From the NCBI GenBank assembly GCA_002322035.1, contig DCNF01000049.1, positions 5,553-25,097 on the forward strand: a stretch of DNA of 19,545 nt, in the 5' to 3' direction. Origin of the DNA: Geobacter sp. UBA1603 (GTDB lineage: Bacteria > Desulfobacterota > Desulfuromonadia > Geobacterales > Pseudopelobacteraceae). A model generated the notes under the pieces. That model ran no database searches. It saw nothing but the letters and a program-made list of their open reading frames with translations, and was not told the origin of the DNA. Made by a program: the position numbers and the translations under genes. Below are positions 11,783 to 14,108 of the stretch, piece after piece; position 1 is the first letter of the stretch, and every line of letters begins with the position of its first letter.

Positions 11783-12070
11783 TCAGCAGCAGTCGCCACT
11801 GTCCATTCTGATGTTGAAGCGGGACAACCAGCGGTTGATCATCCCGCTGGCACACCCCACATCGGCAACCACGCTGATTGCCCGGACCGGGCAGTTCAAG
11901 GCGCAGGCACCGCATTCCATACAGGCATCCCGCGTGACCATGACCGCTTTGCGGTCCTGTATCTGATAGACACCATGGGGACAGACCGTCAGACAGATGC
12001 CGCACCCCACACAGGTCTCGCTGTTCACGTCGAGCGTCAGATCTTCAGCAAGGTACCGAAACCCGTTCAT
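11783..12070 (-). CDS. hgcB: HgcB, 2[4Fe-4S] ferredoxin of mercury methylation
   Basis: A 95-residue ferredoxin with two 4Fe-4S motifs, CVGCGICLTVCP (Cys20-23-26-30) and CMECGACALNCP (Cys50-53-56-60). It also has the extra cysteines that distinguish HgcB from ordinary ferredoxins: Cys73 in DVGCASG and a terminal Cys94-Cys95 pair, the same positions known in Desulfovibrio-type HgcB. By established work, HgcB reduces the cobalt centre of HgcA, and its Cys tail is proposed to handle mercury. Its ATG overlaps the hgcA stop (ATGA), so the two are translationally coupled. The normal length, intact clusters and paired hgcA make this call strong. Confidence 0.97.
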   Translation of the reverse strand: MNGFRYLAEDLTLDVNSETCVGCGICLTVCPHGVYQIQDRKAVMVTRDACMECGACALNCPVRAISVVADVGCASGMINRWLSRFNIRMDSGDCC

Positions 12071-13170
12071 GACAAAAAAAACCTGGCGATCAGTGAGACA
12101 ATACCCAACGCCGCGGCCCAGGCCATGCAGGGGAGCGAGAGCGCCATCTCCCGCCGAACCCCCGAAGGCGACGTAAATGGCGTACTGCCGGTAAAGTTCA
12201 TTGCGTAAAACGAACTGACTGCCGCCATGATCAACAGAAGTGCCGCACGATCAAAGACACTCGGATGCTCCAGGACGGCTGTCAGCAAAACTGCGGCAGC
12301 AACTCCGATAGCAGCCCCTTTGACAGAAAACATCCGACCGGGGAGAAACGGAAGCAGAAGCGGCACCAGCACCGTACCGCAGACAACAGCCCCAAGATAG
12401 ACCGCCGTAGCAGCCACGAAACACTGCCAATCAAACCCGCCCGGATTCAAACCCGCCAGAATAGCCAAGGGAAACCCGACAAACAACACCGATTTCAAGC
12501 CTACGACAAGCTCAATCGGTATCAGCACCGCCCGTTCAGCAAAGCTGAAACTTAATTCACGCATCCCGGGGACAGGTGTCATGGCATTGTCAAGAAATGC
12601 GGGGAGGTCACCAATCCTCAATGTTGCAAAAACGGCATCAAAACCACTTCGCGCCTTGACCTCAACTGCCCGGACTCCGGCTGCCCCCATGATCGGGAGC
12701 AGAAGCGTACGGTGCGACACCACCTTTTCAAGGCCGGAACTCTGCACCCGGCGGATCAGCTCACCGGTGCCAAACGTTCCTTTGCCTGCCGCGCACCAGA
12801 CATTGATGCCATATGTCTCCAGCACCAGAATCCAGACGTCTCGACCTGCCAGAGCCTGGCGAACGAGGTCGTAGCTCATTTTATAGTTGGCGGTCACCAC
12901 AACCGGCGAATTTTCGTCAGGACAGCCAATCGCGTACAGGCCCGGAGGAACGATGTAGGTCATGCGTCCAAGCCCCCAGCGCGCTTTCCAGCCGCCGATC
13001 GTATCCGCCGCAGTCAGACGGCTGGAAACCAGCGGCACCGGGCCGGACGGCGTGTCATGCCAGGCGATGAATCCGGGCACCCGTTCATCTATGATCCCGC
13101 TGACCGCGGGAGTTTTCGGCCCTCAACAGGGAGGCTGGGTATCTGCCTGGTCCGCTTCGTTGTTTTTCAT
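12067..13170 (-). CDS. hgcA: HgcA, corrinoid membrane protein of mercury methylation, possible selenoprotein
   Basis: HgcA transfers a methyl group from its corrinoid cofactor to Hg(II), giving methylmercury. The cytoplasmic domain holds the diagnostic cap-helix motif NVWCAAGK (Cys126 of 367), with GTFGTGELIRRV after it. MTYIVPPGLYAIG and VVVTANYKMSYD precede it. The C-terminal third is about five hydrophobic helices, as in HgcA. A GTG at 13080 opens a 337-residue frame with the full corrinoid domain. Thirty codons of open frame precede it up to ATG 13170, 7 nt after the previous stop, broken only by TGA 13125-13123 (context PPC-TGA-GPK). A SECIS-like hairpin follows, so I give the extended form. 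If TGA is a true stop, 12067-13080 is the CDS. The hgcB overlap is ATGA. Confidence 0.93.
13095..13125 (-). promoter_or_regulatory. in-frame TGA and bacterial SECIS-like hairpin in hgcA
   Basis: On the minus strand, TGA (13125-13123) is followed after 12 nt by the hairpin TCCCGCGGTCAGCGGGA, giving a 6-bp stem with loop GGTCA. The distance from the TGA to the loop is 17 nt. Bacterial SECIS elements lie inside the coding frame just after the UGA, with a G at the first or second loop position and about 16-37 nt to the loop. The E. coli fdhF element has the same GGUC in its loop at nearly the same distance. All of these hold here. No SelB binding has been shown, and short GC-rich hairpins occur by chance. 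Confidence 0.6.
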
Positions 13171-13177
13171 ACCCTTG

Positions 13178-13579
13178 TCAGCACCCACAGCCGCAGTTAT
13201 GGCACACCCGCTGAAATTCACTGGCCGGGGCCACGGTTTCCGGCGCAAATGCCAGCCGCTTTACCGCAGCTTCGATATCTTCACATATGTCACAATGCTC
13301 ACTCTTGCCGATAATATGCCCGACACAGTGGATTCCGGGCAACTCATCAAGCGAAAGCCTGACGCAGTTGAGCAGATCGGCATAACTCTTGACATGAATG
13401 ACCATGTCAGTGCTGTCGCGACGCAGAAGCTTAAATCCGAGCCGCCCCATCTCCGTTTTCAGCTGCTCAAAAAATACCGTAAACCGGTCACCATCGAAAT
13501 CCACATACCAATCGGGCCTCACATGCCTCTGGCCAAAAATAGTGACCGTCAGGGACCTGCGCTGTTGTCTGCATCCCAT
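13178..13579 (-). CDS. unknown Cys-rich protein upstream of hgcA
   Basis: A 133-residue protein that I do not recognise. It has nine cysteines, including CDIC (Cys96, Cys99) in a His/Cys-rich segment (GIHCVGHIIGKSEHC) and a C-terminal thiol tail, CHNCGCGC (Cys126, 129, 131, 133). The N-terminal half looks like a mixed alpha/beta fold (DWYVDFDGDRFTVFFEQL). No signal peptide or membrane helix is visible, so a cytoplasmic location is likely. It ends 7 nt before the ATG at 13170 of hgcA. The Cys tail resembles thiol-rich metal-binding ends, so a role in supplying or binding mercury for HgcA is an inference from position and composition only. ATG 13579 was taken as the start; the ribosome-binding site is weak. 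Confidence 0.8.
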   Translation of the reverse strand: MGCRQQRRSLTVTIFGQRHVRPDWYVDFDGDRFTVFFEQLKTEMGRLGFKLLRRDSTDMVIHVKSYADLLNCVRLSLDELPGIHCVGHIIGKSEHCDICEDIEAAVKRLAFAPETVAPASEFQRVCHNCGCGC

Positions 13580-13604: not shown

Positions 13605-14108
13605 TCAGTCTTTCAGAGGACATTCCGCCTCCCAGGCGACATAACCGTCGCCGGCAATCGCCATAAATCCATCAATCCTGTTCCGGTAATAGTCTCCGGC
13701 AGTCAACTCCTGTTCAAGAAAAACCAGCTCATCGGCAGAAATAAGGTGCAGCGAGTGCAGATAGTGATAGAACTTGCCGATGGCCTCCAGGTGCCGCTCC
13801 AGTACAGAGTATTCCGGGTCAAGCGTATGAGTCGCAAACCAGGTTGCTGCAAAACGCTTCACAAGACCCGGCTGCGGTCGCACCACATTCTGGCGCCCGA
13901 AATCAAGCAGATAGTCGCGGACATAGTAATCTGCCGCAAACGCCAGTTCGGAAGCCTTTTCCGGTTTGAGACCCGAAGCCTGCAGATGAAGATAAAAACG
14001 CCGAAGCAGTTCCCGGCAGCGCTGATCAACCTGCAACTCCTCGTCCAGGGAATCAAACTCGAAATCATCGTGCTCAAATACAATTTCCGGCTGTGCTGAA
14101 CTGATCAT
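13605..14108 (-). CDS. unknown helical protein, possibly co-transcribed with hgcAB
   Basis: A 167-residue protein that I do not recognise. It begins with an acidic stretch (EHDDFEFDSLDEEL, about 12-25) and is otherwise predicted to be helical, with many aromatic and Leu residues (DYYVRDYLLDFG, FYHYLHSLHLI). That pattern vaguely recalls SAM-like all-helical domains of tyrosine recombinases, but no catalytic part is present and I do not claim that function. There is no signal peptide. Its ATG overlaps the stop of the M29 aminopeptidase gene (ATGA), and 25 nt separate it from the 133-residue gene, so it is probably translated from the same message as the genes up to hgcB. Confidence 0.72.
   Translation of the reverse strand: MISSAQPEIVFEHDDFEFDSLDEELQVDQRCRELLRRFYLHLQASGLKPEKASELAFAADYYVRDYLLDFGRQNVVRPQPGLVKRFAATWFATHTLDPEYSVLERHLEAIGKFYHYLHSLHLISADELVFLEQELTAGDYYRNRIDGFMAIAGDGYVAWEAECPLKD

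What the first reader, a model, noticed from the sequence alone, without database searches (positions are those of the whole stretch)
13081..13170. HgcA may be a selenoprotein: in-frame TGA with a SECIS-like hairpin
Seen: 30 codons of open frame run from ATG 13170 to the GTG at 13080, with only one stop, TGA at 13125-13123, in the context PPC-TGA-GPK. The ATG lies 7 nt after the preceding gene's stop, whereas a GTG start would leave a 97-nt gap in an otherwise tight operon. The TGA is followed by hairpin TCCCGCGGTCAGCGGGA with loop GGTCA, 17 nt from the TGA. Known: bacterial SECIS elements have this geometry, and the fdhF loop contains GGUC. Desulfuromonadia commonly make selenoproteins. Inferred: UGA is decoded as selenocysteine, giving a Cys-Sec pair at the HgcA N-terminus. 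I know of no described Sec-containing HgcA.
Basis: partly seen in the sequence, partly recalled or inferred. Interest (0 to 1): 0.95.

Follow-up and report, generated by a model that had tools for sequence, protein, structure and literature searches.

The report
Selenocysteine tail on mercury-methylating HgcA
The gene for the mercury-methylating protein HgcA in this bacterium carries an early UGA codon that is predicted to be read as selenocysteine instead of stop, a trait already proposed for this protein family and found here, with the matching RNA hairpin, in many related genomes.

Summary
In 68 of 80 relatives plus the window the codon is TGA in 59, TGC/TGT in 10, never TAA/TAG; 12 loci lack the motif or region. 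A bacterial-SECIS-type hairpin with its loop 17-20 nt after the UGA occurs in 58 of 59 TGA genes, 50 at -7.5 kcal/mol or lower; 0 of 10 Cys genes reach that. Synonymous shuffling expects 7.2 and the stem covaries. The genome encodes tRNA-Sec, SelA, SelB and SelD. The alternative GTG start is kept in 9 of 69. The novelty claim fails: Sec-HgcA was proposed by Haft & Gwadz 2023 and is tabulated with a CU motif in a 2026 review. Added here: 42 of 110 phylum-wide hgcA loci show the UGA form, with reversed-order and lone-Sec variants and at least 5-6 Sec/Cys switches. A mercury-relay role of the tail is inferred.

The parts
12067..13170 (-). hgcA read through the UGA: 367 residues, Sec at residue 16, Cys of the corrinoid motif at residue 126
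   Evidence: NCBIfam HgcA NF040863 414.9 bits against a cut-off of 275, matching residues 45-364
13123..13125 (-). in-frame UGA, predicted Sec codon (PPC-U-GPK)
   Evidence: TGA in 59 and Cys codon in 10 of 69 sequences, window included
13095..13111 (-). predicted SECIS stem-loop: 6-bp stem, GGUCA loop starting 17 nt after the UGA, -10.9 kcal/mol
   Evidence: conserved and covarying in homologues
13078..13080 (-). GTG that the mechanical ORF list takes as the start; predicted to be an internal Val codon
   Evidence: at this offset from the UGA/Cys codon: GTG in 9 of 69, GTT 30, GTC 19, GTA 10, ACC 1
12781..12804 (-). NVWCAAGK corrinoid motif, Cys at residue 126, 110 residues after the Sec
   Evidence: N123 to K130 invariant in the 41-row alignment
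11783..12070 (-). hgcB: two [4Fe-4S] motifs, VGC with Cys (not Sec), C-terminal Cys-Cys; its ATG overlaps the hgcA stop (ATGA)
   Evidence: NF040864 113.7 bits against a cut-off of 99; tail; overlap
13178..13579 (-). preceding gene, no Pfam or NCBIfam match, ends 7 nt before the hgcA ATG

Best explanation
The in-frame UGA at codon 16 of hgcA is predicted to be decoded as selenocysteine, directed by the stem-loop that follows it, so that HgcA would carry a flexible N-terminal Cys-Sec tail that likely binds Hg(II) for delivery to the corrinoid centre. Shown: the UGA, its exchange with Cys codons in relatives, the conserved and covarying hairpin that the Cys forms lack, and the genes of the selenocysteine machinery in the genome. 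Inferred: UGA decoding itself, by SelB with Sec-tRNA. Inferred with less support: the role of the tail. By analogy with the C-terminal Cys pair of HgcB, and given selenium's affinity for mercury (own knowledge), the Cys-Sec pair would act as a mercury-catching arm near the corrinoid domain. A further predicted consequence is that full-length HgcA, and probably the translationally overlapping HgcB, would be made well only when selenium is available.
For: (1) Same codon: TGA 59, TGC 9, TGT 1, TAA/TAG 0 in 68 loci plus the window; 12 further loci lack the motif or the region. TGA is also found in isolate records (NZ_ accessions: L003, L013, L029, L042, L053, L056, L058, L061, L062). (2) A SECIS-model hairpin with its loop at 17-20 nt in 58 of 59 TGA genes, 50 of 59 at -7.5 kcal/mol or lower; 0 of 10 Cys genes reach that. 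(3) Synonymous codon shuffling expects 7.2 of 59 (observed 50), and 0.15 of 10 for Cys forms (observed 0); for the window 2 of 300 shuffles were as stable. (4) Covariation: 94.4% of 413 cells paired against 44-74% in slid controls; 25 double-change cells against 6.7 +/- 2.0 shuffled. (5) Machinery: tRNA-Sec 76.5 bits with anticodon TCA, SelB 302 bits, SelA 608 bits, SelD 358 bits with an in-frame TGA. (6) SelA or SelB over cut-off in 55 of 58 near TGA genomes; SelA in 42 of 42 phylum-wide UGA-form genomes against 59 of 66 other HgcA genomes (with the assignment). (7) C15, residue 16 (Sec or Cys), G17, P18, G25 and V31-F34 are invariant in 41 rows, 34 of them UGA forms with the UGA entered as Cys. 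(8) AlphaFold2 gives the tail low confidence (residues 1-10 and 11-20: mean pLDDT 49 and 53) ahead of a confident fold, as a flexible arm would show. (9) Either C-terminal Cys of HgcB suffices, but losing both cuts methylation by 95%, and that pair is proposed to carry Hg (PMC7305189, passages).
Against: No protein-level evidence of Sec. Rfam has no match in the window. Three of 58 near TGA genomes show neither SelA nor SelB over cut-off (L017, L018, L023; incomplete assemblies are possible, not tested). One covariation measure, pairs with a change on both sides, is unremarkable (3 against 2.3; 154 of 500 shuffles reach it). One near TGA gene (L034) lacks an unbroken stem. In the wide sample the hairpin rule was looser (-5 kcal/mol): 27 of 41 reach -7.5, L138 and L153 have only a weak hairpin at another spacing (24 nt), and L179 has no unbroken stem. 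Against the Hg-relay role: 38 of 110 wide loci are neither Sec nor Cys-Cys by a crude rule, and the best-studied HgcA (ND132, reactive Cys at residue 93) leaves no room for a residue 110 positions upstream, so the tail cannot be universally essential.
Confidence: 0.87

Rival explanations
1. The UGA is an ordinary stop of a short upstream reading frame, and HgcA starts at the GTG at 13080.
For: A GTG is present, the NCBIfam HgcA model matches only from residue 45 of the read-through protein, and the confident fold begins near residue 31.
Against: The GTG is kept in 9 of 69; the stretch before it is conserved as protein; the UGA alternates with Cys codons and never with TAA/TAG in 69 sequences; a GTG start leaves a 97-nt gap.
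Confidence: 0.02
2. The UGA is a sequencing or assembly error for TGC/TGT, or the gene is a decaying pseudogene.
For: The genome is a 108-contig assembly, 76% complete; raw reads were not available.
Against: 58 other loci show the same TGA, nine of them in isolate records; the frame after the UGA is open for 351 codons; the RNA stem is present in TGA genes and not in Cys genes.
Confidence: 0.01
3. Sec is incorporated, but the tail's main purpose is not Hg capture: it serves thiol/selenol redox chemistry, or couples HgcA synthesis to selenium supply.
For: The native role of HgcA is not known to be Hg methylation (own knowledge). A Sec codon at residue 16, with the ATGA overlap to hgcB, would make both products depend on Sec supply. 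Sec and Cys exchange repeatedly (12 parsimony changes, at least 5 or 6 forced by well-supported branches), so Sec is not indispensable.
Against: A Cys-Cys or Cys-Sec pair in a flexible tail of this complex resembles known Hg-carrying pairs (PMC7305189, passages). A purely regulatory codon need not sit next to a conserved Cys.
Confidence: 0.35

Closest known systems
Sec-containing HgcA (Haft & Gwadz 2023, J Bacteriol 205:e00259-22; NCBIfam NF040863, example WP_250697417.1)
   Same: Same protein family, same CU motif as tabulated in the 2026 review (PMC13188914, passages).
   Different: A new member, from the genome of this window. The 2023 paper is not held, so its alignment and hairpin could not be compared with mine.
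Sec-containing HgcB (NF040864, GVGU motif; listed in the same review)
   Same: Same pathway and the same kind of replacement of a conserved Cys.
   Different: The HgcB of this window has Cys at that place (VGC) and a C-terminal Cys-Cys; HgcB could be read at 64 of 69 near sequences (window included) and shows Cys there in each.
Bacterial SECIS consensus model (PMC13188914, Fig. 2 legend)
   Same: Loop 3-9 nt, stem 4-16 bp, G in the first two loop positions, loop 16-37 nt after the UGA, -7.5 kcal/mol or lower: all met in the window.
   Different: The stem is short (5-8 bp in the near set); the window's GGUCA loop is shared by 9 of 59, while 37 of 59 have GGC or GGU loops.
HgcB C-terminal Cys94/Cys95 pair of strain ND132
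   Same: Vicinal pair in a disordered tail of the same complex, proposed to carry Hg (PMC7305189, passages).
   Different: On the partner protein, at the other terminus, and sulfur only.

Membership tests
HgcA (NF040863) | curated family score | tested here: met
   414.9 bits against 275
HgcA (NF040863) | N(V/I)WC(A/S)(A/G)GK-type corrinoid motif with the reactive Cys (pattern partly recalled) | tested here: met
   NVWCAAGK, Cys126
HgcA (NF040863) | corrinoid domain followed by five transmembrane helices | tested here: met
   predicted model only: long helices at 210-240, 248-271, 281-299, 305-327, 335-366; that there are five is from PMC7305189
HgcA (NF040863) | adjacent hgcB | tested here: met
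   NF040864 113.7 bits against 99, ATGA overlap
HgcA (NF040863) | mercury methylation activity | not testable with these tools
   needs an assay
bacterial selenoprotein | in-frame UGA aligned with Cys in homologues | tested here: met
   59 TGA, 10 Cys codons, 0 TAA/TAG in 69 sequences
bacterial selenoprotein | SECIS element after the UGA | tested here: met
   all limits of the published model met in the window; 50 of 59 TGA genes meet them including energy
bacterial selenoprotein | tRNA-Sec, SelA, SelB, SelD in the genome | tested here: met
bacterial selenoprotein | selenium physically present in the protein | not testable with these tools
   needs 75Se labelling or mass spectrometry
Sec-HgcA of Haft & Gwadz 2023 | CU motif | tested here: met
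   PPCU in the window; CU listed for HgcA in PMC13188914
Sec-HgcA of Haft & Gwadz 2023 | same position and SECIS as in the original description | tested here: inconclusive
   paper not held; the NF040863 match starts after the Sec region

The most novel reading that the evidence does not exclude
In much of this HgcA family selenium itself would be the mercury ligand: a flexible N-terminal Sec arm catches Hg(II) and presents it to the corrinoid, working opposite the HgcB Cys-Cys tail. The partner Cys is dispensable and can sit on either side (CU, UC, lone U), and synthesis of the whole HgcAB pair would be gated by selenium supply. Biochemistry done on the short-tailed HgcA of ND132 would have missed this step.
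Probability: 0.3. Interest if true: 0.75.

Novelty: new member of a known kind. Interest (0 to 1): 0.42.

Why it matters
HgcAB is the only enzyme pair known to me that makes methylmercury, and selenium and mercury chemistry are linked in the environment (own knowledge). A Sec at the HgcA N-terminus means that the standard profile does not cover the true N-terminus, that automatic gene calls may truncate it, that expression without Sec insertion would give at best a shortened protein, and that methylation in Geobacter-type organisms may depend on selenium supply. The survey here indicates that the UGA form is common (42 of 110 sampled loci) rather than a curiosity, and makes the question directly testable.

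Tried and rejected
Rejected: start at the GTG; chance hairpin; assembly error (raw reads not available); absence of Sec machinery; Sec in this HgcB. Little gained: Rfam scan of the window (0 matches at gathering scores); Pfam (HgcA only as CdhD); the solved-structure search (query without the tail) found only corrinoid iron-sulfur protein relatives. Literature: searches. Seen: PMC13188914 (abstract and outline, section 5, passages); PMC11588087 (passages), PMC7305189 (passages), PMC2398784 (passages), PMC12013277 (one reference passage); PMC5029168 searched without a hit. The review also cites Zhang & Gladyshev 2008 (PMC2398784) for Sec-HgcA, but its main text gave no hit for 'CO dehydrogenase', 'acetyl-CoA synthase' or 'corrinoid'; its supplements were not available. 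A notebook slip: notes 57 and 76 give CGA for L105 and L184; the codon is AGA.

Limits: the near and wide sets share sequences (L165/L003, L168/L002, L154/L051, L142/L076, L148/L066 by their printed tails), so they are not independent. The pattern admits only a stop, Cys or Ser at the codon; one search shows the unpatterned reading for 79 of 80 loci (L079 left out). One search takes the Val codon at a fixed offset of 15 codons. The Cys-Cys label is a crude 'CC in the zone' rule, and L179 was added by eye to 41 automatic calls. Five fragmentary over-cut-off hgcA hits were not fetched (G095, G159, G213, G228, G320).

Full report
WHAT IS THERE. On the minus strand hgcA can be read from ATG 13170 with a single in-frame TGA at 13125-13123 (codon 16) to its stop at 12067. 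The preceding gene ends 7 nt before this ATG. The hairpin TCCCGCGGTCAGCGGGA lies at 13111-13095, its loop starting 17 nt after the TGA. The protein is HgcA (NF040863, 414.9 bits against 275) and the next gene is HgcB (NF040864, 113.7 against 99), with an ATGA overlap.

COMPARISON WITH NEAR RELATIVES. A scan of genome contigs found 85 relatives and kept the best 80. The motif around the UGA was found in 68 of these and the window; 12 loci lack the motif or the region: L005 and L079 are cut or fragmentary, and nine of the other ten are Firmicutes by their record titles. At the UGA position there are 59 TGA (window included), 9 TGC, 1 TGT, and no TAA or TAG. The codon at the place of the window's GTG is GTG in only 9 of 69; the rest are GTT 30, GTC 19, GTA 10, ACC 1. 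In a 41-row alignment (34 UGA forms, window included, and 7 Cys forms) C15, residue 16, G17, P18, G25 and the VPGF segment are invariant.

RNA LEVEL. The published bacterial SECIS limits are: loop 3-9 nt, stem 4-16 bp, G in the first two loop positions, 16-37 nt after the UGA, -7.5 kcal/mol (PMC13188914, Fig. 2 legend). By these, 58 of 59 TGA genes have a hairpin with its loop at 17-20 nt, 50 of them at -7.5 or lower; of 10 Cys genes none reaches the threshold (whose scan started at 12 nt; with the limit of 16 nt gives the same 50 and 0). With the amino acids kept and codons shuffled synonymously, 7.2 of 59 would reach the threshold, and 2 of 300 shuffles of the window's segment are as stable as the real one. 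On the gap-free alignment of the 59 TGA genes the seven-pair stem is formed in 94.4% of 413 cells (slid controls 44-74%), with 25 double-change cells against 6.7 +/- 2.0 in shuffles; one measure, pairs with a change on both sides, is not unusual (3 against 2.3; 154 of 500 shuffles reach it). The hairpin alone in the window is not rare: 14 of 815 TGAs have one as stable.

MACHINERY. The window's genome (75.9% complete) has tRNA-Sec (76.5 bits; anticodon TCA), SelB, SelA (608 bits) and SelD, which itself holds an in-frame TGA. Among the 58 near TGA genomes SelA is over its cut-off in 52 and SelB in 3 of the other 6, so 55 of 58 have one or the other. Among the 10 Cys genomes SelA is over cut-off in 6 and SelB in one more (L039); L041, L050 and L077 have neither over cut-off. 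Of 10 no-motif loci submitted, 2 genomes were not held and 3 of 8 have SelA.

WIDER DISTRIBUTION. In 395 genomes drawn evenly from the phylum, 114 (the window's own among them) have HgcA over the cut-off. I read 110 hgcA loci from 108 of them. First in-frame stops lying 104-112 codons upstream of the corrinoid motif are TGA in 43 loci and TAA in 3. Of the TGA loci 41 have a SECIS-type hairpin by a looser rule (-5 kcal/mol or lower; 27 of 41 reach -7.5; L138 and L153 have only a weak one at 24 nt), a 42nd (L179) is the same by protein context but has no unbroken stem, and one TGA (L159) and the three TAA cases have no hairpin and look like ordinary upstream stops. Thus 42 of 110 are read as Sec forms, 29 as Cys-Cys by a crude rule, 38 as neither, and one (L109) could not be labelled. 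SelA is over cut-off in all 42 Sec-form genomes and in 59 of the other 66. Two loci (L105, L184) have AGA (Arg) at the place, followed by what by eye is a remnant of the hairpin. The partner Cys precedes the Sec in 33 of 42 and follows it in four (L133, L138, L145, L176); one is CxU (L158) and four have no Cys next to the Sec (L117, L131, L178, L194). On trees of the domain without the tail, Sec and Cys need 12 changes, at least 5 (FastTree, 190 rows) or 6 (IQ-TREE quick, 146 rows) forced by well-supported branches; direction is not determined, and some rows have long branches. The near and wide sets overlap.

LIKELY MECHANISM. Decoding of the UGA by SelB and Sec-tRNA at the hairpin is inferred from the above. 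The Sec sits in an N-terminal stretch that AlphaFold2 leaves at low confidence (mean pLDDT 49 and 53 for residues 1-10 and 11-20), 110 residues before the reactive Cys and just before a confident fold. In HgcB the C-terminal Cys pair sits in a disordered tail, its double replacement removes 95% of activity, and it is proposed to carry Hg (PMC7305189, passages). I infer a similar role for the Cys-Sec tail of HgcA. Against its being essential: strain ND132 HgcA has its reactive Cys at residue 93, which leaves no room for a residue 110 positions earlier, and many HgcA proteins lack the motif. A regulatory reading, HgcAB made only with selenium, is compatible.

WHAT IS KNOWN. Sec-HgcA is not new. 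[quoted passage not shown] PMC13188914 (passages) lists HgcA with a CU motif (WP_250697417.1) and HgcB with GVGU. The 2023 paper is not held, so its details could not be compared. The NF040863 match starts at residue 45 of the read-through protein, so the profile gives no view of the Sec region.

VERDICT. A correct and well-supported selenoprotein call in a family already proposed to contain selenoproteins; this is a new member. I do not claim that these details are absent from print.

Noticed in passing
L133, L138, L145, L176; L117, L131, L178, L194; L158: UGA-form HgcA in which the Cys follows the Sec (UC), or no Cys is adjacent, or the order is CxU; all called with a SECIS-type hairpin, weak and at another spacing in L138.
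   Followed up: partly
L105, L184: The UGA place reads AGA (Arg), followed by what by eye is a hairpin remnant; a possible loss of Sec.
   Followed up: partly
L095 (G000:C93:7193-8116): SelD of the window's genome contains one in-frame TGA, so it is probably a selenoprotein itself.
   Followed up: no
window 13178-13579 (-): Gene just before hgcA with no Pfam or NCBIfam match, ending CHNCGCGC; among the 80 near loci a relative was found only in L001 (51%).
   Followed up: partly
window 13605-14108 (-): Gene without Pfam or NCBIfam match, with relatives upstream of hgcA in L001, L002, L003, L004, L006 and L008 (44-61% identity).
   Followed up: partly
L158 and L170 (same genome, G361): One genome holds two hgcA loci, one of UGA form and one not.
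   Followed up: no
L006: No strict HgcB cluster motif found in the 700 nt after a UGA-form hgcA, although the contig goes on.
   Followed up: no
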